DNA of 64,000 nt from Heligmosomoides polygyrus polygyrus. Lineage: Eukaryota; Nematoda; Chromadorea; Rhabditida; Heligmosomidae. Shown here one piece after another: positions 4,536 to 49,606 of this stretch. The DNA lies in NCBI GenBank assembly GCA_947396885.1, contig OX377202.1, positions 5,208,001 through 5,272,000 on the forward strand, written 5' to 3'. Positions within the stretch are counted from its first letter, which is position 1. Each line of letters begins with the position of its first letter. The notes beneath the pieces were generated by a model. That model was not told where the DNA came from. It saw only the letters and a list, made by a program, of their open reading frames with translations, and ran no database searches. Position numbers and translations under genes: made by a program.

Positions 4536-4833
4536 TTTTGTTGCGATCAAAACTTCTAGCGCCAGGCGGGACTCGAAGCCGCACCTCCCTCTTACCGGGC
4601 GGGAATGCTCTACGCCATTACACCACCGGCACCGTTTGATCGAACGCAACATCCACACCTCGTGGGACCGATCAGCACCCACCCGTGTCCGGGATGAGCT
4701 GGCCGCTGATGTCAGCATGGGACCAGTTAAGCTGATGGTCTTGATAGAAAATGGCGTAGAGCATTCCCGCCCGGTCAGAGGGAGGTGCGGGTTCGAATCC
4801 CGCCTGGCGCTAGAAGTTTTGATCGCAACAAAA
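4536..4833. mobile_element. foldback with tRNA-like arms
   Basis: Arms 4536-4620 and 4749-4833 are about 85-bp inverted repeats with few mismatches. Read outward on the minus strand, the left arm starts GTGCCGGTGGTGTAATGGCG (acceptor 5' strand and box A) and continues to GGCTTCGAGTCCCGCCTGGC (box B, T arm and acceptor 3' strand). The right arm has a better box B (GGTTCGAATCC) but lacks the acceptor 5' strand. The anticodon arm is degenerate, so neither is called a working tRNA. The spacer resembles that of the copy at 36849-37102. Confidence 0.7.
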
Positions 4834-16440: not shown

Positions 16441-16817
16441 TTACTGTTTAGTCAGGTAATAAAAAATTCCAAAGAAATTGATTTAAATACACCATTCTTC
16501 GCCTTTTATATTAACATGATCATTTTTTATTTAATTTCACTAGCCAATTCGGCAACTGACTTATTTTCTTGTTCACTTCGTTACATTACCTACTCATTAA
16601 AATCCAGCTAATACATAAAGTTAGAATAACACAATTTTTGAGGGTTGAAATCGAGTGTTAGACCGATTGTTCAAATTTTCATCTGTTTTTATTGATCTTT
16701 TAATAACCTAAGCTGTAGAAATTAATGAGTGTACTAACTATGTAGCTAGGTTTCCCGAAAAAATCTTTGAAATACAGTAATTTATTCATTCATTTCAATT
16801 AATAGCGGGAATTAATA

Positions 16818-18119
16818 TTAGGTTGTAACGAATTAAATGGCACTGGCTCGCGCCACTTTTTGGCGCGTCTTTACGCGTTTGATCAAGGACAAACCGTAAC
16901 CTGTGGCATATCATTTAGAAGCGCAAACTTTGTTCTACCGGCGAGTACCAAATTTTCTATGTAAAAGTGGGAAAACTTTAGAGTTTTATTGACATTTCTG
17001 CAGATGGACAAAAGGGTAATCCGAGACATTTACTTGTATGAATTCAAGCTGGGCACTACAGCTAAGGAGGCGGACGAGAAGATCAACGCCGCATTCGGTC
17101 AAGGATGTTCCACAATTCGGACGGCGTATCGTTGGTATCAGAAGTTCCGGAATGGAGATGAGAGCTTGGAGGAACATGAAGGTCGTGGGAGGCATAGTGA
17201 TGTTGATGAGGACAAGCTGAGAGATGTGGTAGAGGAGGATCCACACAAAGGTACCAGGGAGATAGCGAAGGTTCTTGGCGTCAGTCACAACACAGCTGCC
17301 CGGCATCTGAAGGAAATTGGAAAGACCAAAAAGCTGGAAAGATGGGTGCCTCACGAGCTGTCTGAGGAGCAAAGAAACCGACGATATGAGATCTCGTCCG
17401 CACTGCTTCTACGGAACGAAACGGACCCATTCCTTGATCGCATCGTAACCTGTGACGAGAAATGGATAATGTACGACAACAGGCGACGATCGGCACAGTG
17501 GGTGGACAGCGATGAGAGCCCCAAGGTTTTTGCGAAGCCGGAATTGCACCAAAAGAAAGTAATGGTGACAGTATGGTGGTGTTCGCTGGGAATTATTCAC
17601 CACAGCTTCCCCCCCCCCCCTCCCGGTGGATCCATCACGGCAGAGAAGTACTGCATTGAAATTGAAGAAATGATGAAAAAGTTGAAGGATATCCGGCCGG
17701 CCTTGGTAAACCGAAGGCGAGTTCTCCTTCTGCTCGACAATGCTCGCCCCCATGTAGCACGAATGACGTTGCAGAAGTCGAATGAGCCGAGCATTGAAAC
17801 TCTACCACATCCTCCTCCGTTTTCTACCGACCTCTCCCCAACAGGCTACCATTTCTTCAAGCATCTTGGCGACTTCTTGGTAGGGAAAATATTCAAATAC
17901 CAACAGGATGCCGAAAGTGCCTTCGAAGGTTTCGTCAATTCCAGAAATTCTGATTTTTATGCTACTGGGATAAAAAAGCTTGTGTCACGTTGGCAAAGAT
18001 GTGAAGAATCAGAAGGTTTTTATTTCGATTCATAAACTTGCCTACAAGCCGAGAAACTGTTTAATATTAACTGTTTAAGTTTACAGTGGTTCAGTGCCAT
18101 TTATTTCGTTACAACCTAA
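16818..18119 (+). mobile_element. complete 1302-bp mariner element
   Basis: Terminal inverted repeats of 28 bp (16818-16845 and 18092-18119), beginning TTAGGTTGTAACGAA, match at 27 of 28 positions. TA dinucleotides at 16816-16817 and 18120-18121 form the target duplication. TTAGGTTG ends are shared with Hsmar1-type mariners. One long ORF fills the interior. Near-identical ends and an unbroken ORF point to a fairly recent insertion. Confidence 0.93.
17004..18035 (+). CDS. mariner transposase, catalytically altered
   Basis: 343 residues, the normal length for the family, from the ATG at 17004 (just after the 5' UTR inside the element). The N-terminal third is the paired helix-turn-helix DNA-binding region (about 1-110). 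The conserved linker WVPHEL is at 114-119. The DDE domain follows: TCDEKW gives the first Asp (D151) and LLLDNARPH the second (D245). The third position, normally the second D of SPDL.PTDYH, reads STDLSPTGYHFF: Gly281 replaces Asp, and one extra Pro makes the spacing 35 instead of 34. A run of five prolines (203-207) comes from a C10 tract at about 17610 and replaces the usual short loop. By family knowledge, loss of the third metal ligand should abolish strand transfer. DNA binding could persist. Confidence 0.93.
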   Translation: MDKRVIRDIYLYEFKLGTTAKEADEKINAAFGQGCSTIRTAYRWYQKFRNGDESLEEHEGRGRHSDVDEDKLRDVVEEDPHKGTREIAKVLGVSHNTAARHLKEIGKTKKLERWVPHELSEEQRNRRYEISSALLLRNETDPFLDRIVTCDEKWIMYDNRRRSAQWVDSDESPKVFAKPELHQKKVMVTVWWCSLGIIHHSFPPPPPGGSITAEKYCIEIEEMMKKLKDIRPALVNRRRVLLLLDNARPHVARMTLQKSNEPSIETLPHPPPFSTDLSPTGYHFFKHLGDFLVGKIFKYQQDAESAFEGFVNSRNSDFYATGIKKLVSRWQRCEESEGFYFDS

Positions 18120-18480
18120 TAGATTTTCCGAAAAAAAAACGAGCAGCTAGATTATCTGAAAAGAAAACTTTTCAAGTATAGTAATTTATTCATTTATTTC
18201 TATTACTAGTAGAAATTACTAGATTTTTCAAAAAAAGCATGTAGCTAAATTTCAAATACAATTTTAATTAATTCATTTCAAATATTATTAGGAATTATTA
18301 GATTTCACGAAAAAACGAGTAGCTAGATTATCCGAAAAAACTTTTCAAATCCAGTAATTTATTCATTTATTTCAATTATTGGGAGGAATTATTAGATGTT
18401 CCGAAAAAATGGGCAGCTAGATTTTGCAAAAAACTTTTCAAATCCAGTAATTTATTCGTTTATTTCAATTATTAGTTTAA

Positions 18481-21331: not shown

Positions 21332-21440
21332 AGTTTCTTTAAGCCTCAATTGGCTGGTATCGAGGTTGTAAGCTGTCACAACAATGTTTTGTTGCGATCA
21401 AAACTTCTAGCGCCAGGCGGGACTCGAACCCGCCTATGGC
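21332..21440 (-). repeat. solo arm of the tRNA-like foldback
   Basis: CAAATCAGTTTCTTTAAGCC...GGTATCGAGGTTGTAAG is the reverse complement of 4834-4895. It is followed by TTTTGTTGCGATCAAAACTT and CCAGGCGGGACTCGAACCCG (box B complement). The copy stops before the anticodon region, so only one arm is present. Confidence 0.65.
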
Positions 21441-27215: not shown

Positions 27216-27635
27216 ATGTTGAAAGAGGAGATCAATTTCAGTTTCAAACTGGGCCAATCCGCCGCCGAAACATCCCTGAAAATCAACCATGTGTGGGGGC
27301 CAATTGCGCTGAGGAAATGACCGTGTAACAGTTCTTCGAGAAATTTCTCTCTCAACCTCGAAGATGCTCCCCAAAACGGCAGACCTACAGCAACCCAGGG
27401 CGACGACCTGAAGACCTTCGTGGAAGCTGATCCATCTCAATCAGTCCGTGAGGTTGCGGAAGGTCTAGGAGTCCGTAAAACTGCTGTTACAAATGCTTTG
27501 AAACGCCTCGGAAAGGTGAAAAAGCTCGAAAGTGGGTGTCACACGATTTGAGCGATCGCCAGAAATGGTCCGCTTCGAGATCTGTTCTTCTTTGCTCTTC
27601 CGGAATCAACTCTACCCGTTTATGGATCATAGCAT
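27216..27635 (+). pseudogene. mariner transposase pseudogene, N-terminal half
   Basis: From ATG 27216 one frame gives FSFKLGQSAAETSLKINHVW, then a disrupted stretch with a stop, and then EDAPQNGRPTATQGDDLK, SVREVAEGLGVRKTAVTNAL and KRLGKVKKLE: the two helix-turn-helix segments of a mariner. A frameshift follows at the WVPHEL-like linker (WVSHDLSDRQKW in the next frame), and the last recognisable piece is RFEICSSLLFRNQLYPF. The catalytic domain is gone; the sequence runs into a TAAA repeat. This is a different subfamily from the mariner at 17004. Confidence 0.85.
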
Positions 27636-36474: not shown

Positions 36475-36518
<44 letters not shown>

Positions 36519-36520
36519 CT
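36470..36520. repeat. (TTTA)n microsatellite
   Basis: About 12 TTTA units; it forms an inverted pair with the AAAT tract at 36145-36195. Confidence 0.9.
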
Positions 36521-36848
36521 TATATTGTTAACTACAATGGACTAACTACTCAAATGCATGGAAATATAGGGAAAAGAAAAAGGAAAATGATATTTAAAAT
36601 GCACAAAAAACTAGCGGGACAGATTCAGCGCGATGGAAGGAGCCCAGGAAAATGGTGATAGGGAAAACAGTAGAAAACTATTCTCCTAGTGGTTCCTAAT
36701 AGCGTAATAGGCTAATAAGAACATCTGTATCTAGACTAGCTGGCATTGGTACCCTCCTCCCTTAGGTATTTATACTTTGAGCTGAAGCTTCGGGACACGG
36801 GTAAGCCAACCAAGGGTATGCCAAGCAATTCTGCTACAAGACGTTTCG

Positions 36849-37102
36849 TTGCGATCAAAACTCTTGCACCAGACGATACTCGAACCTGCACCTTCCGCTT
36901 TCCGAGCAGTGATGCTACGCCTTACACCACCGGCGCTGTTTGACCTCTCGTAACATACGCGATATATTCGAGGGCTATCAACACACCCGTGATGTCGGGA
37001 TTATCCCGGTCAAACAACGTTGGTGGTGTAAGGCGAGCATCGCCACCCGAAAGCAGAATGTGCGGGTTCGAGTCCCGCATGGTGCAGGAGTTTTGATCGC
37101 AA
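36849..37102. mobile_element. foldback with tRNA-like arms (second copy)
   Basis: Arms 36849-36944 and 37009-37102 are inverted repeats. The right arm, on the plus strand, reads GTTGGTGGTGTAAGGCGAGC (box A region) to GGTTCGAGTCCCGCATGGTG (box B and acceptor). The left arm encodes the same on the minus strand with a possible seven-base anticodon loop TCGGAAA. The 64-bp spacer matches the spacer of the 4536 copy (AACACACCCGTGATGTC). Stem mismatches argue against functional tRNAs. Confidence 0.7.
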
Positions 37103-37249
37103 AAAAAAACATCCTGAAACAACATAGGCCTCTCCACCAGCTGTTCCAGGCTTAAGCAAATGTGTTAAAACCAAGCAGTTTTATTGGAGAACCGTAGTTG
37201 CCCTTGCTGCTGATGACTGAGCAAGGAGGCATTTCCTCTTCAGGTGATG

Positions 37250-37375
37250 ACGCCTTATTCGACGACGATCCACTGGGCTACTTTGGCACGAGACGGGAAT
37301 GAATGGGGACGCTGCTGGCGCCCGACGACGATCAGCGGGACGAAAGGCGATAAGTAAAAGCTGGTAAAGGCAATG
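37250..37375 (+). pseudogene. decayed LINE C-terminal remnant
   Basis: One frame gives WATLARDGNEWGRCWRP, close to [14 protein letters not shown] at 1821-1997. Flanking codons are shifted and interrupted. Same family, older. Confidence 0.5.
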
Positions 37376-37995
37376 CAGTTCACCGACCGAATGAAAGCCC
37401 CGGACCGAGCCTGTTTTACACAGCCCGTCAGCACCAGCGCTCCATAGTAAATAGCTACTCCCTAAGGCCTTGTGCATCCGGAGTTTCGGTGTTTACCAGT
37501 CGAGTGGCTGGTGTCAATTGTTATGTGGCCCCGTCGTCTGTCATACTCATATACGAGAGTGACGACGCAGCCAAAACAAACGGCCTCACTATGACATCGT
37601 CTTCTGGACATCCTGCTCAACGAGATACTCATTCTGGACGCTGTCTTCTACCCATTACAGTCGGATTGGCGATAACAAACCCTAAACGCAGGGCGATAAA
37701 CCATAACTCCTCCAGAATGAACGGCGAAAAGCGAACTTGTTCCTAAGAAAACCCGAGAGCTCGTGGCTTCAATACCAACATTGCTCACTATCAATCGACT
37801 CTATGACTATCGAAGAAATCTAGGTACATGGCGCATACGAAAGCACCCAAATAAGCAAGGAAACCTACTTGAAATATTACTCTTCATATTGAATTATGGC
37901 AATAAATTTTACAAAGGGTACGATAAACAGAACACCTCTTATCGCTAAAACATCCTTGGAATGCGCCATGCGTTCCACGGAACTCTGGCATTTGC

Positions 37996-38286
37996 GAAGG
38001 CGTTGCTAAGATGTCTCGCCAAAAGTTGCCGGAGCTTCGGTGGGAGGTACTGTTCCACTCACCGTATTCGCCGTACGTCCTACCGTCTGTCTACCACCTC
38101 TTCGGGGATCTTAAGCAACATCTGAGCGATAGACACTTCGATGACCAGGTGCAACTAGGATCTGTGAAGATGCAGTTCCTCGAGTCACAGCCGTCTTCAT
38201 TCTTACAGAAGGGAATTCCGGCCGATGACCTGTTCATTAGATCGGAGAAGGTAGTCGATGCCAACGGTGCTTGCTTTGTAGATTGA
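37996..38286 (+). pseudogene. mariner transposase pseudogene, C-terminal third
   Basis: VAKMSRQKLPELRWEVLFHS, then PYSPYVLPSVYHLFGDLKQH and FLESQPSSFL, ending VVDANGACFVD and TGA. This is the mariner C-terminal catalytic segment (normally SPDLAPSDYHLF). Both the Asp of SPDL and the third catalytic Asp are replaced (Y and V). Everything before the second Asp is missing. The last ~17 codons are duplicated in the tandem unit starting 38721. Confidence 0.85.
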
Positions 38287-38317
38287 AATTGAAACTGTAC
38301 ACGTAAAGTAATAATGT

Positions 38318-38417
38318 GGTTTAATTACCCAAGTTTGAGGTTCCCCTTCCGACTAGGAACACGGAAACCGAGTCTGTCTGGGCAATCAGACTTTGAAGAA
38401 GGCGACGGCGCCGAAAC
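38318..38417 (+). ncRNA. SL1 spliced-leader RNA gene or pseudogene (copy 1)
   Basis: Positions 38318-38339 equal the 22-nt SL1 exon used for trans-splicing across nematodes (starts GGTTTAATTACCCAAG, ends TTTGAG) and are followed by GT, the donor of SL RNA. Downstream folding fits a roughly 100-nt SL RNA: GTTT/AAAC and GTTCC/GGAAC form stem 1 across the donor; AGTCTG/CAGACT is a perfect second stem; GGCG-ACGG-CGCC a third. Between stems 2 and 3 is CTTTGAAG, a poor match to the Sm site (AAUUUUUGG-like). A gene, a decayed gene or an SL1-tipped retrocopy are all possible. Confidence 0.6.
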
Positions 38418-38792
38418 ATCAGCCGTATTAAGGTTGATGACAATGTTGGTCATGGTCAACAGCTGAACGATCTCATCATCTATAGATCAAAGCAATAATA
38501 TTTTTTAAATTTATGTTTTGAACTGAAATTTTTAACCCGCTATTTTTATTTATTTTGAACTTGAATTTTAATTAATTTCTCAATAATTTTTATAAATTTA
38601 TTTATTTTTACTTTTGTTTTTCATTTCCTTCATAATGAATTAAAATAATATTTTTCAAAATATTATACAAATTAATAAAATGATATTTGAAAAATTTTCC
38701 GCACTATTGCTAAACATTTCCATTAGATGGGAGAAGTCGACAACAGTGCTTGCTTTGCAGATTGAAATTCTATACATGTAAAGCAATAATGG

Positions 38793-38890
38793 GGTTTAAT
38801 TACCCAAGTTTGAGGTTCCTCTTCCGACTAGAAACACGGAAACTGAGTCTGTCTGGGCAATCAGACTTTGAGGAAGGCGACGGCGCAGAA
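38793..38890 (+). ncRNA. SL1 spliced-leader RNA gene or pseudogene (copy 2)
   Basis: SL1 is again exact (38793-38814) and followed by GTTCC. Stem 1 has one change (GAAAC instead of GGAAC), stem 2 (AGTCTG/CAGACT) is intact, and stem 3 is weakened (GGCG..CGCA). The candidate Sm-site position reads CTTTGAGG. Preservation of the 22-mer against changes elsewhere in the unit hints at constraint on the leader, but two copies are too few to prove it. Confidence 0.55.
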
Positions 38891-38931
38891 ACGTCAGCCG
38901 TAATAAAGTTGATGTCATTCCTGATCAACAG
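38849..38931 (+). ncRNA. hammerhead-ribozyme-like fold
   Basis: TTGAGGA (38868-38874) matches the CUGANGA core except for the first base. GAAA (38888-38891) follows after a short stem II, and CGTCA/TGATG close stem III, leaving GTC (38914-38916) as a canonical cleavage triplet. Stem I can form from ATCAG/CTGAT and CTGT/ACAG with an internal loop. The C-to-U change at the first core base would be expected to cripple cleavage. Unit 1 has the same core but GAC in place of GTC. Hammerheads of this kind occur in Penelope-like elements and retrozymes. Confidence 0.3.
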
Positions 38932-39440
38932 CTGAACGACTCTATCTATAGATTGAAGCAATAATATAATTTTGAATTTTGTTCTGAACAACATATTTGT
39001 ATCTATTTTGAACGTGAATTTTAATTAGTTTTGCAATAATTTTTATTTTTTACATTTGTTTTTCATCTCATTCATAATTTCATTCATAATGAATCAAAAT
39101 AATAATTTTTAAAATATTGTTCTAATTAATAAAATAATCTTTAAAAAATTTCCGTACTGTTGCAGAACTATTCTGACAACCTAATACAGATACATAAGCC
39201 TCCAGTGCTCAGGCGCTGTGATCCCAGGCAGACAACTGGTGACCCTATGGACTTCTTGATCTTGATCAGAAGTGGAGGGCTAACTGAACTCGTGCCTGGG
39301 TTCGAAATTCAAGCCAATTGCAACTGCGCCGACAACCACTGCTCCATCTGGGTGCCGCGTACGTGGAGTTGACAATCAGGAGTTCAGGACAATGTCCAGC
39401 ATTTCATCTACTGTAGAGCCAAAAAAGGACAGGGTCAGCA

Positions 39441-39479
39441 CACTCATTGGCTTGGCTTATATAGACAAGCCAATGAGTG
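39441..39479. repeat. 14-bp-arm hairpin
   Basis: CACTCATTGGCTTG and CAAGCCAATGAGTG are perfectly complementary around an 11-nt AT-rich loop. Surrounding 39173-40590 shows no recognised gene; a GTC microsatellite is at 39952-39980 and a SINE-motif block at about 40395. Confidence 0.7.
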
Positions 39480-39951
39480 ACCGTTCAGAGCCTCATTCCG
39501 GTAAGAAAGCCGTCACTAAGCTGACCAGCTCTTCACTCAGTTACTCACAGGTGACGTTGACTAGAGCAGGTGACAGCCTTACAGCGGCATAGGTGAACTG
39601 GCCAGCATTCTGGTCCAGAAATCACAGGTGCAACTTCTATCTGATGCACCCATCTTTTGATCACGATTCTGATTATCGTCCTCGTGATTTTCCGCAAAAA
39701 TGGGCAAAATATCAAGAATCTCAGCACCCAAAGAACAATCACATTTGATGGCTATAGTTGTCTCCGCCACTCAGTTCAGCCCTCGTTTCAATGGCCCGTC
39801 CTTGAAAGCGCAGTGGATGAGACGCGCTCGGCTAAGCAAGGCAATCTGATGTTTTTGCTCAGCGGTGGCTTATTGTCGACGGTCGCACTCACGTGCGATT
39901 TTATTTCCGCGTTATCGAGCCGGCTCAAAGGCTCAGCGGTGGAGCGGTTTT

Positions 39952-39980
39952 TCGTCGTCGTCGTCGTCGTCGTCGTCGTC
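39952..39980. repeat. (GTC)n microsatellite
   Basis: About nine GTC units, preceded by a GC-rich stretch. It could encode a homopolymer only in a frame without other coding evidence. Confidence 0.85.
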
Positions 39981-40589
39981 CTCGCTACCGCATCATTGAG
40001 CAGCTCCCATGGGAAAGCATACGCGTGACCGGGCGGACGTGGTGGAAGATGGGTCTTGGAGATTAAACCTCTCGCTAGGAGGATTATCTTGAGATCAAAT
40101 GGCTTCTGTCACCCTCCAATGTACAAGGAAATAAGTGGATGAGACTTTCAGAACTCAGAAGGGGAGCATAAAGCTCACCAGCTTGCAGGGTAAACACATG
40201 AGTAGTCTCAGGGTTCGATTCTTTTTGGCTGAGTTTTTGTGTTTCGTTTTTTCGATTTTCCTTTGATTTTTCCCGGTTAACTCCCTCCTTCGTCATAGTC
40301 GAAGTTAGAAACAGCGAAGCACCGGTTCGCCTAGCGCCCAAAGTCTTTTTGCGTCCACTCAGAAAACGACACATTCCAGGGACTACGTACAAGTTCAATG
40401 CATGGCGCAGTCCAACCAGCTGGGTAATAAATACTATTGGTTTCTCTAAATCGAAAAATGTTTAATAAATAAATGAAAACCAATAAAATATGATAAAAAG
40501 TGAAAGCAGTCAATAATTCCAGAAGTGCAACTGCAATAGAAATCGAAAGGGCGTTTATACTTTATCGCACGCGCGACAAGTTCCAGAAA

Positions 40590-41060
40590 TTAATAATATT
40601 GATTGATATTCATCGACCAATCGATGAATATTCACTTAACGTAAAGGTTGTCCACCTACCAAGACTTCCAGGAATTCCCACTTCGACACTTCTTGACAAT
40701 CTAGACAGATATCGATAATATCGATCGCCATCGATTCGCAGACCGGTAGTGCTCAATTGTTCAGAAGGCTTCACACCAACCATCATATTGGTGTAATGAT
40801 CGGCTGAAGCGGTTGAACCCCAAGCAGCATTCACTACAACTCAACCATATCGAATGACTTGTAGTGAATGCTTTCCAGCGGCAATTAATTCTGCGCGGAC
40901 GGACAGATGGACGAGCGGACTGGCGATCGATTCTTGTTTTCTAATCACGAAGCTCGTTCATCGTCGACCGAAATATCCAATGGACTTCCATTTCAACCAG
41001 ACATTTTTGAGCAATAATCGATAGAATCGATCGATATTGACCAGAATGATCATTAATGCG
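40590..41060. repeat. ATCGAT-rich repeat cluster
   Basis: GATTGATATTCATCGACCAA, ATATCGATAATATCGATCGC and ATCGATAGAATCGATCGATA recur with intervening ACCGGTAG; related to 15360-15785 and 31080-31660. Region 41061-41526 is GC-rich but shows no supported exon. Confidence 0.5.
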
Positions 41061-41526
41061 TACTCATTGAGGAGTCTGCCCACCATTCATCCTATTGACG
41101 GGCTGTTAACGCTGAGCAAAAATCGATAACATCAACTGCGTTGTTTGAAAAAAGGTCCAAATGCACTGCAATCAGTGCAAAATGCTGCAATGTGGCTGCA
41201 AAAGTGGCCCCGAGGAGTTTTTCCCGCGTGCGAGCACCACCATCAGTCAGCCGGACACCCACCGCTGACGTCAAACACCGCGTGCACATGTGGCGGACCG
41301 CAACCGAACTCGCAGAAAACCGCTGCGCTTCACCAGATGTGCGTGTGGTTCTTCTCGGTGCTGCACTGTTATTGCACTCCGAATGGCCGTCGTTGGAAAA
41401 AGCCGGTGGTCTATTTTTAGACGCGAAAAAGACAAGCTGGCAATAAATTGGGGTAAATTTGGGGTATGGTAGTAAATAACTCAGCTACTGATTAATAGTA
41501 GATGTTGGTTGTCTTAAAACTAACAA

Positions 41527-42120
41527 ACACAGTGTGTCTAAAAAACTGTTCGGGAGGTTAAATATGTTACCAGTAGAGGTGTTGAGAAAGGTAGGAGCTC
41601 ATATGAGAGCATAAGAAAGTAGAAGTTTACTGACATATTAGCGGTAAGGATTGCGCCACGTTCTCGTCTGAACTCTTGCATTTTCCACTCGACTCATTGT
41701 GTTTCGCTTCAATGCTTGTTAAAAGATCTCCATAAAGTGACTGTATCCATTGATTTGGGCTTGTATTAAAGTTCAAACTTGAAAGCACAAAACTACGTAC
41801 AACTTGCGGCAAATCCTAAAAAATCTTAAAAAAAACCCTTAAAACGCCAAAAGTCCTAAAAATGTGGGTGCTGTTTGAAAGATTCTAAGGTTGCTAGTAC
41901 TGAAGCTTTTGGAGATGTTTGTGACTCATTTGAAGGCACAGGATAAAATTCTGAGACATACAAATGGTCAAGGTTGCGCCATGCATTCGTCCGAACTCCT
42001 ACATTTCAGACTCGATTGATTATGCATGGGCTGAGCTAACCACATTAACCTGTACAGTACTTCTTTCGACGTGTTGATCTTGATAGTGCACTAGAAATTG
42101 TGGCAAAATGCAGAGTATCC
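41527..42120 (+). repeat. solo arm of the 1.24-kb foldback family
   Basis: GTGTCTAAAAAACTGTTCGG at the left end, GACATATTAGCGGTAAGGAT, then GGTTGCGCCATGCATTCGTC follow the left-arm order of 10131-11371. The other arm and the transposase relic are absent. Confidence 0.6.
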
Positions 42121-42625
42121 TGAAGAACCTAGACGCTATATGGAATGCCATACCATACCATTGCCGGCGTATGGAGCATAAACGAAGTAATACCCTTATA
42201 TTTTGATGCCTGATGCGTGCTGGTCCTTGAGCGATTAGCCTGAGTGGACGAGTTTGCACGGCACACCCTCGACAACTCGTCCAACATTGGTGTCCGTGGC
42301 TTTTGGCTGTATATTTTCACGTTGACGTTCCACCTATGGTACCTACATTGCAAGGTTGCTGCTTCAATATCGATCCAATATCTAATATTACACCAAGTAT
42401 CGATCGCGATGATGGCAGATCGCTACGAATGAATGCTGCTGCTAAACGTTGCATTGTTCAAACAGTATCTGAATTTTCTAGGATACAGGGGGGAAGCTGG
42501 CTGAATGTGTGCAAAGCTCCGCAAATTACAAAGATCACGCCCCAAGCCCTAAAGTGAGAAGATATAGCCCTTTTACATCATATACATAGAATTGTCCGAA
42601 TTCCGCTTTCCATGAATCTGGCATG

Positions 42626-43163
42626 GTGACTCAGACAAACACGACGTCTTCTTCGAGCTGTTGACCAACGTTGTTATACGGTTTCATTCCGGCCTATGTT
42701 TCATCGCCGTCACCTTCTTCAAAGCTTGGAAAAGTCGGAAATATTTACGATACTACTCGCTCAAACACCATTTCATCTAATATTTCACTATTCCTAAGAA
42801 AAACGTAGGAAAGAGCCGAGACCAGAGGGCCTGTTCATACTTCGAGCGATAAGAGGCACAAGAGCGACAAGAGCGACGAACATTCTGTGGCGTATGTAAG
42901 TAATTACGTACTGCACACTCCATCCGCGGCGAATGTAGTGTGGAATACGTAATTATTTACGTACACCACACTACGCCCGTCGCCCCAGTCGCTGCAGTCG
43001 CTCTAATCGCTCTTGTGACTCGAAGTATGAACAGGCCGAAAGTTACAAATATTTCCGCTTTTTCCTGGCCCTGATGAAGGCCAAGGTGCCGAAGCGTAAG
43101 CCGAGATGGGACTGTATAACAATCATGGGGTACGGCTCGAAGAAGACGTGTTTGTCCGAGCCC
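42626..43163. mobile_element. foldback whose arms carry a hammerhead-like module
   Basis: The left arm (42626-42750, read on minus) contains CTTTGAAGAAGGTGACGGCG and GAAACATAGG. The right arm (43040-43163, plus) contains CCTGATGAAGGCCAAGGTGC and CGAAGCG, then CGGCTCGAAGAAGACGTGTT. The two align with each other and with the post-SL1 half of 38.3-38.9 kb. The right arm has a perfect CUGAUGA but GAAG instead of GAAA. A palindrome fills the centre. Confidence 0.5.
42828..43037. mobile_element. palindromic MITE with TTCATACTTCGAG ends
   Basis: GGCCTGTTCATACTTCGAG and CTCGAAGTATGAACAGGCC are perfect inverted ends. Inside, TAAGTAATTACGTA faces TACGTAATTATTTACGTAC. The ends resemble those of the 58098 element (TTTATACTTCGACGCCGAGC). 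Confidence 0.75.
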
Positions 43164-43734
43164 TTCTACAGCCAACTCTATCCACAGCCAAATGCCTCCT
43201 AACTGCACCATTATCGCAATCAGAAGCGATGACCACTGGCGTCTTAGAAACAGAAGTGACAGCAAACTCTGCCGCCTGTTGTGTCCGAAGATTTCCGCTC
43301 TTCAGACACAACGAAGGGATGAAGCACCCAGTCCTTCGGCAACATCGTCTCGTCGTCGTATCGTCCATCATTTGGAGCCTCGGATTTTCTCATCAAATAC
43401 GCACCTCGTCGCTCATTCCAGCTGCTCCTGCACCCATACACACACGCATCGCAACGCAATTAATTTGGCACCAGCAGAGACCTTAAGTGTGTTTGATCCC
43501 AGGCGCTGCAGGCGTGTTTTCCGATGCGGAATTGAATCCGAGACGCCAGCTGAGGTTCTGGAGTGTGGCTTCAGTGTTCCCTACCGGTTTCAAGGCGCAC
43601 CAGGGCATCTACAGCATCTCCAGCCGACATATGGAGTGGAGGTGTACAGCGACTTGCTGATAACGGCTATTAGTAGGTCAAGACCCGGAGTTCTCAGCGT
43701 TTAAGGAGCAGCTCCCACTGGCTCTCACTTCTGG

Positions 43735-43945
43735 CTGATGTGGTGCAGTCGGTAGGAAGAGCTGATCCAGCGCTGATCATCAATCGTTTGTTGGTTCGAC
43801 TTCTGCTCATGTCATGTCAGACTAGAACTGGAACTCTCTGCGTGCCCCAGAAGATTTGCATTAAAATGACCTTTCACCTTAAGAAGGAAATCAGAATGCG
43901 TGGCGTATCACAAAGCTGGTTGACTAACTTCCACCCCTATTTTTG
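43735..43945 (+). mobile_element. SINE, variant tRNA-like head
   Basis: Head TGATGTGGTGCAGTCGGTAG with a box B-like TTGGTTCGACTTC; 3' end AGAATGCGTGGCGTATCACA and GGTTGACTAACTTCC. The middle is short. Similar in design to 32325-32560. Confidence 0.6.
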
Positions 43946-44938
43946 CCGTATCTAGGTGGGGCTAAAATACTACGAAACCTTTAAAAACCAACTGAATACC
44001 TAAACACCGCCAAAGCCTTATTGTTACCCAAATCCTTCGGCATACGCCATGCCTTTGATTGAATACTGCGCAGTGTCGTGGATACGTTCTCTTTGAAGGG
44101 CATTTTAACGGCTAATTAGCGTAACCATATGGCCGGCTTGTTCTACCAGTAGAATGCATGGCGCACACCAAGTGTGACTGAACCACTTCCAAATTTTATT
44201 TCCGCAATAATGACATGATATCAGAAAATACTTATTTAAAATTGTAATGTTCTACTCAAAAAAAAAAACAACAAAAGATTTAACATGTCGCTCCATCGAG
44301 AGTCCTCAAATGTTCTTGAGTTTACGCCATGCATTCGACTTTCTATCAAGACGAGAAGTCCCATACCATATTGCATGAATTAATCATATTATTTTTTCGG
44401 TGCTATTTATTTAATTCGTCATTTCTCGTCATTTGTTTAATTATTTACTTTAATACACCAAAATGCGCTCTGATACAATAAATTGAAGAAAAAAAAAAAA
44501 CATTTATCCATTTAATTGCTACATTCCTTCGAAATATCTCAAGATACATCCTGATACCTTAAATTCTATTGCATTGAAATGGAATTATTGAAAATAATAA
44601 AAAATAACTTCTAAAGGCTTAAATACCATATTTCAAACGGTATCGTCCGTAATCCGACCACTTAAAATCTACACCTTTACTCAAAGTTTAACAAAATATT
44701 TTACAAAAAATAAAAATAAACAAAAATAATATAAAATAAAATATCTGATATCCATTGGTTTACGCGATGCATTGATCGCTCAGCGGTAAACATACTATGT
44801 ACGGGTTCATCCACGGTGTACAATCCATGAAGTGTAAATGACAATGTTTATCAATCCCTCTTTAGGACGCGCCATGCGTTCTACTTCTGCGGAATGGAAG
44901 GACGTTTACATGGAATAACCTGAATAATGGATCTATCC
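43946..44938. other. no gene; scattered SINE-tail fragments
   Basis: Inverted SINE-tail motifs occur at about 44040 (minus) and 44150 (plus), with further ACGCCATGCATT-type blocks at 44318, 44758 and 44868. 44380-44740 is AT-rich with no recognisable feature. Confidence 0.5.
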
Positions 44939-45503
44939 TAGTCCGGGGGAGCCACATAACTAAAAAGTAGGCAACAAAATGAAATGAAACTTACCGAGCG
45001 GCTCCTAGAGAACGCGCTGGAACCTAAAAAACCGAAAACGAGCGAACAAACGAAAAAAATAAAAAAATCGCCGCGGTTTACAACCGTCTCGGCGGACAAA
45101 GAGCGACGAAATGGAGGCATGCCGCGTGCTGACCACCGCCTGACATGTTATAACCAGGATCTAACGTGGTGGGGAGGGCGCATGAAGCCGCATGCCGTGT
45201 GCTGACCACCGCCTGACATGTTATAACCAGGATCTAACATGGTGGGGAGGGCGCATGAAGCCGCATGCCGCGTGCTGAACGTCGCTTGACATGTTATAAC
45301 TAGAATCTAACTTGGTGAGGAGGGCACACAACTTTGCCTTTTTACAACCGTAACAAATGCAATTTTTTCGTTTTTTTTTCTTCAAGACTTTTCTTGTTTA
45401 GGTCTCATGTTGTTCTGTAGGTGCCGCTCGGTAAGTCTCAAGTGGATTTGTTACATATAACCCTTTTAGTTATGTGCCCCCCCCCCCGGACTAGGATAGA
45501 TCC
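44939..45503. mobile_element. 565-bp TIR element with internal minisatellite (copy B)
   Basis: Ends GGATCTATCCTAGTCCGGGG and CCCCGGACTAGGATAGATCC; the long TIR continues with CTTACCGAGCGGCTCCTAGA and TGCCGCTCGGTAAG. It contains three minisatellite units (GACATGTTATAACCAGGATC), one more than copy A, and runs in the opposite orientation. Flanking octamers TGAATAAT and CGAAAATA only partly agree. Confidence 0.75.
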
Positions 45504-45609
45504 CGAAAATAATTATTGTATTGTTACTTAATAATTTATTTAAATATTTAAAGACAAAATTTTTCGTAAACTATGATTTGAATTAGGCCAACAGAATGAC
45601 TTGCGGTGG

Positions 45610-45899
45610 CCATAAAGGATAAAGGACGGCGTTACACAATCCCTCCTGGGATGCGCCAGCGCATTCTACTTCTACGGGATGTCGTGGAGGCGACATGAAT
45701 GCGTATTTGGCCATACAATGACTTGCGGTGGCCAGCCGAGGAACAAGTCAGCGCTCTATCCTTCCTAGACAAGTCTGGTACCAATTCACCGACCCCGGAG
45801 GGATGGAAGTCTTGGTTGGCTGGGGAGGAACCCGAACAAAGAACCTTGGTTTCCGGTGCACGCGTTGACCGGCGCTTTCTCCGACTGCGCTACCACGCA
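45610..45899 (-). mobile_element. tRNA-derived SINE
   Basis: Tail AAAGGATAAAGGACGGCG, GATGCGCCAGCGCATTCTAC and GCGACATGAATGCGTATTTG, the same diagnostic variants as 9452-9747, so both belong to one subfamily. The left flank is itself a SINE scrap (GACTTGCGGTGGCCATAAAG). Confidence 0.85.
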
Positions 45900-46541
45900 C
45901 TGCACAGCGTTGTTTGACTGAAAGGTGGCCGGTGCAGTGGAATCGAAGGGCGATCTGACTATAAGACAGGTAGTACTCGGCTCTACATGGTACTGCACTG
46001 CCCGTACCGTTTCCGTTTCGGCGCTTGGCCAAAGGGTTGTATAGGCCACTGTTGAATGCAGCACGGAAATTAGCCTCTGTTTTCCTCCCCTTTCCCAGCG
46101 ATTTGTTTAGGCAACAAATTCCCAGCGCTCTATGGGTGGGCTATATTTTCTGGCGAACCCCGTGCGATGAAACATCGCCGCAGCTGATTGAGAGAAGACG
46201 CTGAAAAAGGCCCGTCGGCGGCGGTGGCCAACAAACTCAACTCATCGCTCATATCTCGGGGCGGCGGACCGACACGAGCCTCCTCAACAAAACACTGGCC
46301 GTCTCTCGAAGGAGTATTACGCTCGAGTGTCGAGCTATTTATCACGGAGTCCGGCCGGGCGCATGCTCGCACCATAGGGCCTTCCCTTGAGACCTCAGAC
46401 GACGTCCGAGCATCACTTGTCAGAAACGGCAAAACGCAGAAGAAACACCAGCAGATTTGGCGGAGCTTCCAGCCACGTTTTCCGCCTGCATCTGAGAGTG
46501 ACTGCGGCCGACTGCAGTGAAACAACAGGAGAAACGAACGA

Positions 46542-47764: not shown

Positions 47765-49606
47765 GAATAACGGCAAATTGATAGGACTACAGCCATGGGA
47801 GCATAGTAACTGTTAGAGATCAGAGCAGGATAATGCAGAAAGCGCCACATTCTTTCTTCTTTGCTTCGTTCTGGATTGTAGAGACCCTATGTGGCATTTG
47901 TTGTGTGAGCCGATTTACACAATATTGTCGGAGGCACTTTAATATTTATATTATTGCCATTATTATAAACACTACCGCCGTATCTGCTGAATGAGATAGT
48001 CGTAGTCTAATTTTAATTTAAACTATTTTTATCCTTTAATATTTTTTATTTTCTAATATTTCCGAAATCCTTTATTCTTATTAGTACATATAGGGGGGAT
48101 TATCGCTAATTTTTTTAAATTTAAGAAACGGCAACATCTAGAAAGATAACAATAGGATAGAGAAAAAGCTTACAACCAAGTTTTTTTAACAGTTGGGTGG
48201 ACCGAGGAGATGAATTAAGAGCAATTTAAAAAAAAGGCATTTTCTCTTTGGAATGAGCCATGCGTTTCAGTTTTGCGGAACATTGTGGGCTCAAGTTGAA
48301 GGCGGACCTTTTGAGAAAGCGTCAGATATAGTACGTTGAAATTTCCTTCAAAAGAACTTTTGAAAAATTGAAATAGGGAACAAAGATAAGACTTCCATGG
48401 TGGCTATCGTGATAGCTCTCTCGTTGTCGAAAATCTAATCAAAAACACAAGGCTGTCAAGTAGCAACGGCACGAAAACTGCTGTCGACAAGTGGGCCCAG
48501 GGCGGATTAGGTGGATTTTTTTTTAAACAGTCCCTTTCTATCCTGAAAATTCACTGCCCGTTGTCCGTCTTCTGCCTGCCACTCCTTTCAGCATGCGATT
48601 CCGCGAGATTACAAAAAGCGAAAATCGGAAATTGAAGTGTCTGAGAGTGCAGAGGAATCAGTGCGGTTTTTCGACAGACTTCTAATTTCCTAGTGCTCAC
48701 TGACTTTCACCAACACAATAAACAATTCGGAAATGAACACTGGAAATGCGTTTCGAATATTCTTTTTGATTGAGCGGAAATAATGGCAGATTTAGCCGCC
48801 ACAATCAACTTCAAATATTCCACTTGAAGACCAGTTTCCTAGGTCAAAAAAACTCATCAGAGAAGCGTCGAAGGTGAAGCCCTAGACTTCTGGAGTCGAT
48901 GAATTCATGGAAGTCGTTTTCGTGCATCGTTCAATGTTTAGACTGTATTGCTATAAAGAGATTACTAGGGCACATAGTTAGATAGCATTCGGATCCAAAT
49001 AGGTCAAGGGCGTTTCCGCTACTGGTTCCGCTCTCTGAGTAGATTTCAAAACGTCCTTTGGAGCAGCATCGCATCATTAAGCGGCCTAACTAAGCAGGTA
49101 GAGCAACTTTTTTTGGTTCTAGACTGACAAAGAACATAAGAGGAAAGCTCAGGCTTTATGTTTCGATGGCAAAATCGCAAGCTCGAGCAAGCTTTTTCAC
49201 CCAAAGAAATTTAATGAAGTCCAACCACATTTTGAGCGTAAATCAGGAAGACTTAGGTCTATCTTTGCATGGTTTCAAGAGACTATTTTTGCGTGCTGTA
49301 ATTCAGTTAGGCTTATTTGTTTTTTATTGATTTTGACATTTATTTTGATATTTTCACGCGTGGCTTCGATCCACATCGTGAAAAAAAAATAAGTAACAGG
49401 ACAAAGGTGGATAATAAATAAAAGACTACGTTATTCAATCCCTTTTTGGGAAGCGGCATATATTCTACCTCTGTGGGATGTCGTGGTGGTAATAAGAGCT
49501 TTATTTAACATGTCGTAGGTCTGCACTACATCTTCTAAGAAGTAGATTCCTATTAAGCCCTATATTTGACTGGGAATCGCCTTTTCCGCTTTTTGCCTGA
49601 TTTCAA
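47765..49606. other. no recognised gene
   Basis: SINE-tail fragments occur at about 48241-48310 and 49413-49497 (minus strand). The rest, including AT-rich 47930-48230, has no exon, RNA gene or complete element that I can support. Confidence 0.4.

What the first reader, a model, noticed from the sequence alone, without database searches (positions are those of the whole stretch)
38318..38890. Two exact SL1 spliced-leader sequences in a 0.48-kb tandem repeat
The 22-nt nematode SL1 exon followed by GT occurs twice at the same place in each unit of a tandem duplication, with stems that could fold as an SL RNA. The Sm-site position is weak (CTTTGAAG/CTTTGAGG). Either this is a small dispersed SL1 RNA gene cluster away from 5S rDNA, or the SL1 was captured when a trans-spliced transcript was copied into DNA. 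The leader is identical in both copies although the rest has diverged.
Basis: partly seen in the sequence, partly recalled or inferred. Interest (0 to 1): 0.85.

Follow-up and report, generated by a model that had tools for sequence, protein, structure and literature searches.

The report
SL1 leader copies in transposon debris
Two exact copies of the nematode SL1 spliced-leader sequence sit in a duplicated stretch of transposon debris; they look more like a leader copied back into DNA from a processed RNA than like working spliced-leader genes, but this could not be settled without the rest of the genome.

Summary
In detail: the 22-nt SL1 exon is exact at 38318-38339 and 38793-38814 (+), followed by GT, 475 nt apart in a two-copy repeat; none expected by chance. 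The reading as an SL1 RNA gene cluster is not supported: no spliced-leader family matched in Rfam, folding is no better than in shuffles, and the Sm-like ACTTTG, though well placed, is one T short of a published nematode motif. The sequence from that motif onward is related to an arm of a foldback-like repeat at 42.6-43.2 kb that has no SL1. Identity of the leader is not significant (p 0.15). Each unit begins with the tail of a decayed mariner transposase. A 10-11-nt direct repeat brackets SL1 plus module: exact in unit 2 (15 of 5000 shuffles), one mismatch in unit 1. Best reading (0.45): an SL1-capped RNA was reverse-transcribed into mariner debris, then duplicated; no poly(A) is seen. A dead SL RNA gene is the main rival. 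The host genome could not be searched.

The parts
38002..38286 (+). C-terminal remnant of a mariner-type transposase, ending in a stop; the last part of it opens repeat unit 1
   Evidence: tblastn of the intact window mariner (16965-18035) matches 38002-38277, 32% over 93 columns, E 3.4e-4; ORF 37927-38286. Against: Pfam finds nothing in this ORF or in six-frame read-through of 36500-41499.
38233..38717 (+). repeat unit 1
   Evidence: alignment to unit 2, 379 of 421 identical without gaps; BLAST 80.3% over 478 columns
38718..39170 (+). repeat unit 2
38305..38315 (+). 5' copy of the flanking direct repeat in unit 1 (one mismatch to its partner at 38489-38499)
   Evidence: read; the exact-match shuffle test fails in unit 1 (best exact match 6 nt, 3622 of 5000 shuffles)
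38318..38339 (+). SL1 exon, exact 22 nt, followed by GT
38340..38488 (+). module after SL1 in unit 1; 38387-38477 is related to a foldback-like repeat arm at 42643-42728 (-)
   Evidence: nhmmer with 38318-38500 as single query, E 1.2e-6; blastn E 2.1e-5 over 63 columns
38390..38395 (+). Sm-like ACTTTG in unit 1, one T short of the published motif
   Evidence: offset 50 after the exon; strict pattern fails, relaxed pattern passes; published pattern
38489..38499 (+). 3' copy of the flanking direct repeat in unit 1
   Evidence: read
38780..38790 (+). 5' copy of the flanking direct repeat in unit 2
   Evidence: 10 nt exact to 38956-38965; 15 of 5000 shuffles reach it
38793..38814 (+). SL1 exon, exact 22 nt, followed by GT
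38815..38955 (+). module after SL1 in unit 2, with the same Sm-like ACTTTG at offset 50
38956..38965 (+). 3' copy of the flanking direct repeat in unit 2
38500..38717 (+). A+T-rich end of unit 1; only counterpart found in the window is in unit 2
   Evidence: nhmmer E 1.5e-14 to 38956-39168
42643..42728 (-). related copy of the downstream module, without SL1; one arm of a foldback-like repeat
   Evidence: arms compared (117 columns, 73%, E 2e-15)
43065..43129 (+). other arm of that repeat, without SL1
   Evidence: direct match to unit 1 is weak (nhmmer E 0.033; blastn finds nothing significant); tied in through the first arm

Best explanation
An RNA that carried SL1 at its 5' end, most likely a trans-spliced transcript that included a dispersed repeat, was reverse-transcribed and inserted beside the 3' end of a decayed mariner transposase, leaving a 10-11-nt target-site duplication. 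A stretch of about 0.48 kb holding the mariner tail, the SL1 copy and A+T-rich flank was later duplicated in tandem. The copies are relics that drift neutrally. Shown: exact SL1, tandem duplication, mariner tail, relation of the module to a repeat without SL1. Suggested: the target-site duplication. Inferred: reverse transcription and trans-splicing of the parent.
For: Full-length SL1 beginning 2 nt after a direct-repeat copy. Flanking direct repeat exact for 10 nt in unit 2, 15 of 5000 shuffles. Module from 38387 on is related to a foldback-like arm that has no SL1. Insertion lies next to mariner debris. No structure beyond shuffles and no excess conservation of SL1, as expected of a relic. 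SL-tagged retrocopies are established in dinoflagellates (PMC6050394, passages).
Against: No poly(A) tail at the module's 3' end (read). The direct repeat has one mismatch in unit 1, where the exact-match test gives nothing (3622 of 5000 shuffles). GT after the exon and a near-Sm motif at the right spacing are expected of an SL RNA and only coincidental here (relaxed motif at 5.3% of 6903 GT sites in the window). No parent transcript or gene was found. The mariner assignment is weak by Pfam.
Confidence: 0.45

Rival explanations
1. A dead SL1 RNA gene, or a retroposed copy of an SL1 RNA itself (a small-RNA pseudogene): exon, GT, a hairpin, a damaged Sm site, a second hairpin.
For: GT directly after the exon; ACTTTG at offset 50, inside the 40-55 range used for C. 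elegans; tail-less insertion with a flanking repeat suits a copied small RNA. SL RNA pseudogenes are reported in C. elegans and as rife in Ciona (PMC7986045, passages).
Against: No SL family matched in Rfam up to E 10 (no positive control was available). The downstream half is related to a repeat without SL1.
Confidence: 0.3
2. A working, divergent SL1 RNA gene pair away from 5S rDNA.
For: Exact exon and GT in both units; near-Sm motif at the right distance in both. SL1 RNA genes do occur as satellite repeats in Meloidogyne (PMC9673304, passages).
Against: Strict Sm pattern fails in 2 of 2 units. Folds no better than shuffles, while the recalled C. elegans SL1 RNA has z -2.2 by the same script. 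By eye, two of three candidate stems lose a pair in unit 2 (GTTCC/GGAAC and GGCG/CGCC); the third is unchanged. In Meloidogyne exon and Sm site are the conserved parts, whereas here SL1 is not significantly better conserved than its surroundings.
Confidence: 0.07
3. The SL1 piece is part of a short mobile repeat family headed by SL1 (a SINE-like element), of which these are two copies.
For: Flanking direct repeat; related module elsewhere in the window.
Against: No third SL1 in the window, even for its last 15 nt with 2 mismatches; the related copies lack SL1.
Confidence: 0.1

Closest known systems
Spliced-leader-tagged retrocopies of dinoflagellates (passages of PMC6050394)
   Same: A spliced-leader sequence stands in genomic DNA in front of transcript-derived sequence, as a trace of reverse transcription.
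   Different: Nematode SL1; two copies made by DNA duplication; no coding gene or parent identified; no poly(A).
Nematode SL1 RNA genes, such as C. elegans sls-1 (passages of PMC7986045)
   Same: Exact exon, GT after it, U-rich motif at a similar distance.
   Different: Sm motif one T short, no fold beyond shuffles, no SL family match in Rfam.
MelSat01, the SL1b satellite of Meloidogyne (passages of PMC9673304)
   Same: SL1 exon inside a tandem repeat.
   Different: There exon and Sm site are the conserved parts of a large satellite; here two units, weak Sm motif, and conservation of SL1 not above its surroundings.
Mariner-type transposons
   Same: Both units open with the tail of a mariner-type transposase reading frame.
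   Different: Only the last 90 or so residues are recognisable; no inverted terminal repeats were found round this copy.

Membership tests
Nematode SL1 RNA gene | 22-nt SL1 exon | tested here: met
   exact in 2 of 2 units
Nematode SL1 RNA gene | GT donor directly after the exon | tested here: met
   2 of 2 units
Nematode SL1 RNA gene | Sm site AC?T{4,6}G 40-55 nt after the exon (pattern from PMC7986045) | tested here: not met
   ACTTTG at offset 50, one T short, in 2 of 2 units
Nematode SL1 RNA gene | stem-loops | tested here: inconclusive
Nematode SL1 RNA gene | match to the Rfam SL families | tested here: inconclusive
   no match; no positive control, and that SL1 and SL2 models are in the library is recalled, not shown by a call
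Nematode SL1 RNA gene | capped transcript of about 100 nt | not testable with these tools
   no expression data
SL-tagged retrocopy | complete leader at the 5' edge of the insert | tested here: met
   22 of 22 nt in both units, 2 nt after the direct-repeat copy
SL-tagged retrocopy | target-site duplication | tested here: inconclusive
   10 nt exact in unit 2 (15 of 5000 shuffles); one mismatch in unit 1, where the exact test fails (3622 of 5000)
SL-tagged retrocopy | poly(A) tail | tested here: not met
   none at 38480-38500 or 38945-38966; lack of a tail is not excluding for all retrotransposition routes (recalled)
SL-tagged retrocopy | parent locus without SL1 and with an AG acceptor | not tested
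   The genome search unanswered 12 times; the related copies in the window diverge before the junction

The most novel reading that the evidence does not exclude
Transcripts of a nematode repeat are trans-spliced to SL1 and then copied back into the genome, so that SL1 in DNA marks retroposition in nematodes as the spliced leader does in dinoflagellates, possibly as an SL1-headed mobile family in this species.
Probability: 0.25. Interest if true: 0.6.

Novelty: new member of a known kind. Interest (0 to 1): 0.38.

Why it matters
If the retroposition reading is right, exact SL1 in genomic DNA can serve as a tag for reverse-transcribed copies of trans-spliced RNAs in nematodes, and such relics will contaminate counts of SL RNA genes that rest on exon plus GT alone. 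If it is wrong, the locus is an unusual dispersed SL1 RNA pseudogene. A working gene would be a surprise because of the short Sm motif.

Tried and rejected
Chance match: rejected. Coding reading: a reading frame of 50 and 48 residues runs through SL1 in both units, but Pfam finds nothing, a protein search on that part gave 3 candidates and none at E 1 or better. Penelope-like or other retroelement next to the module: six-frame Pfam scans of 41500-46499 and 36500-41499 gave only weak matches of E 0.08 or worse and no reverse transcriptase. Hammerhead ribozyme in the module or the foldback arms: suspected by eye from memory of the core, no Rfam match, one unrelated chance-level pattern match at 48834-48860. 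SL2-like leader (sequence recalled): none within 3 mismatches. SL1 in other collections: 0 in viral contigs and 0 in genome contigs (records near the window's own genome may be left out). nhmmer with the alignment of the three module copies printed nothing; only the single-sequence queries gave results. Literature: seven searches; I saw the listings of all and passages of four papers (PMC9673304, PMC3156134, PMC7986045, PMC6050394). No listed title or abstract start reported SL1-tagged retrocopies in nematodes, but I did not read the other listed papers.

Full report
What is there. The 22-nt nematode SL1 exon occurs twice, exactly, on the + strand at 38318-38339 and 38793-38814, and nowhere else in the window with up to 3 mismatches; shuffles give none. 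Both are followed by GT. They lie at the same place in two units of a tandem repeat, 475 nt apart. The units are 80.3% identical over 478 BLAST columns, or 379 of 421 aligned bases without gaps. That exact SL1 means a nematode is recalled knowledge; the window's organism was not identified.

Surroundings. ORF 37927-38286 ends in what looks like the C-terminus of a mariner transposase: an intact mariner elsewhere in the window (16965-18035, Pfam Transposase_1 E 2.1e-23) matches 38002-38277 by tblastn, 32% over 93 columns, E 3.4e-4. Pfam itself does not recognise this remnant, so the assignment rests on that one comparison. Unit 2 starts within the same tail, by DNA alignment to unit 1. From the stop codon (38284-38286) to SL1 there are only 31 nt. 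The rest of each unit after the SL1 module is A+T-rich and has no other counterpart that nhmmer found in the window. The window holds no 5S rRNA at Rfam's gathering score; the only family reported is a tRNA at 4558-4632.

Is it an SL1 RNA gene? Exon and GT are met. The Sm site is not: the published pattern for C. elegans SL RNAs is 40-55 bases, then AC?T{4,6}G (PMC7986045, passages). Both units have ACTTTG at offset 50, the right distance with one T too few. To weigh that near miss: 5.3% of the 6903 GT dinucleotides of the window pass the relaxed pattern and 1.7% the strict one. By eye on the alignment, one pair of GTTCC/GGAAC and one of GGCG/CGCC are lost in unit 2, and AGTCTG/CAGACT is unchanged. 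The intron part is no more like the recalled C. elegans one than shuffles are (144 and 103 of 300 as good). Rfam gave no SL family at any threshold used, with the caveat that I had no positive control.

Is the leader under selection? All 22 bases agree between the units, but so do 126 of 139 in the module after it (p 0.22) and 357 of 399 in all other aligned columns (p 0.15); an equally long identical run of 27 nt, unrelated to SL1, lies at 38370-38396. This gives no evidence of constraint. It also does not exclude it.

What follows SL1? A single-sequence nhmmer search with 38318-38500 found, besides the two units, 42643-42728 on the - strand (E 1.2e-6, matching 38387-38477) and, below the inclusion threshold, 43065-43129 on the + strand (E 0.033). 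blastn supports the first (E 2.1e-5) and not the second. These two are inverted arms of one foldback-like repeat: 117 columns at 73%, E 2e-15, and 50 columns at 80%, E 2e-9. Neither has SL1, and in both the stretch aligned to the Sm-like motif reads differently (AAGCTTTGAAG and GCCCTGATGAAG). So the half of the supposed SL RNA that holds the Sm-like motif and the second hairpin belongs to a dispersed repeat. This is the main argument against an SL RNA gene.

Insertion signs. In unit 2 the 10-mer AAGCAATAAT ends 2 nt before SL1 and recurs at 38956-38965, the end of the module; 15 of 5000 shuffles do as well. In unit 1 the corresponding 11-mers (38305-38315 and 38489-38499) differ at one base, and the exact-match test there gives only 6 nt, which 3622 of 5000 shuffles reach. 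If units 1 and 2 descend from one insertion, that mismatch is a later change, but that is inference. No poly(A) lies at the module's end.

Mechanism. I think it most likely (0.45) that an RNA with SL1 at its 5' end, including a piece of a dispersed repeat, was copied into DNA beside mariner debris and the locus was then duplicated. A dead or retroposed SL1 RNA comes next (0.30), then an SL1-headed short mobile family (0.10) and a working gene (0.07). The rest is left to readings that I have not thought of.

Known relatives. SL-tagged retrocopies are well described in dinoflagellates (PMC6050394, passages). In Meloidogyne an SL1 RNA gene is part of a satellite and its exon and Sm site are the conserved parts (PMC9673304, passages). 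C. elegans has 5'-truncated SL1 pseudogenes, and Ciona is said to be rife with SL pseudogenes (PMC7986045, passages). My five searches on spliced leaders listed no paper whose title or abstract start reports SL1-tagged retrocopies in nematodes; I read passages of four papers and not the rest.

Limits. Everything on copy number, parent locus and main SL1 genes therefore remains open.

Noticed in passing
window 16816-18121: A near-intact mariner: 30-nt inverted terminal arms 97% complementary with TA at both ends, and a 356-residue open frame with Pfam Transposase_1 (E 2.1e-23) and HTH_48.
   Followed up: partly
window 27237-27627: A second, decayed mariner transposase fragment, tblastn E 1.4e-13 to the intact one, with a frame change and a stop.
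   Followed up: no
window 42643-43160: A foldback-like element with inverted arms of about 117 nt (73%). One arm holds CTGATGAAGGC...GCCGAAGC, which by eye resembles a hammerhead core; Rfam does not support it.
   Followed up: partly
window 4557-4633, 36844-37107, 21381-21433: A tRNA-Thr-like sequence whose surroundings match arms of an inverted repeat at 36.8-37.1 kb and a piece at 21.4 kb: a tRNA-like part of a repeat family rather than a lone tRNA gene.
   Followed up: no
whole window: Dense in dispersed repeats: for instance a family with members near 2.8, 9.5, 18.6, 25.2, 34.5, 45.7 and 50.8 kb (self-comparison, listing cut at 80 rows).
   Followed up: no
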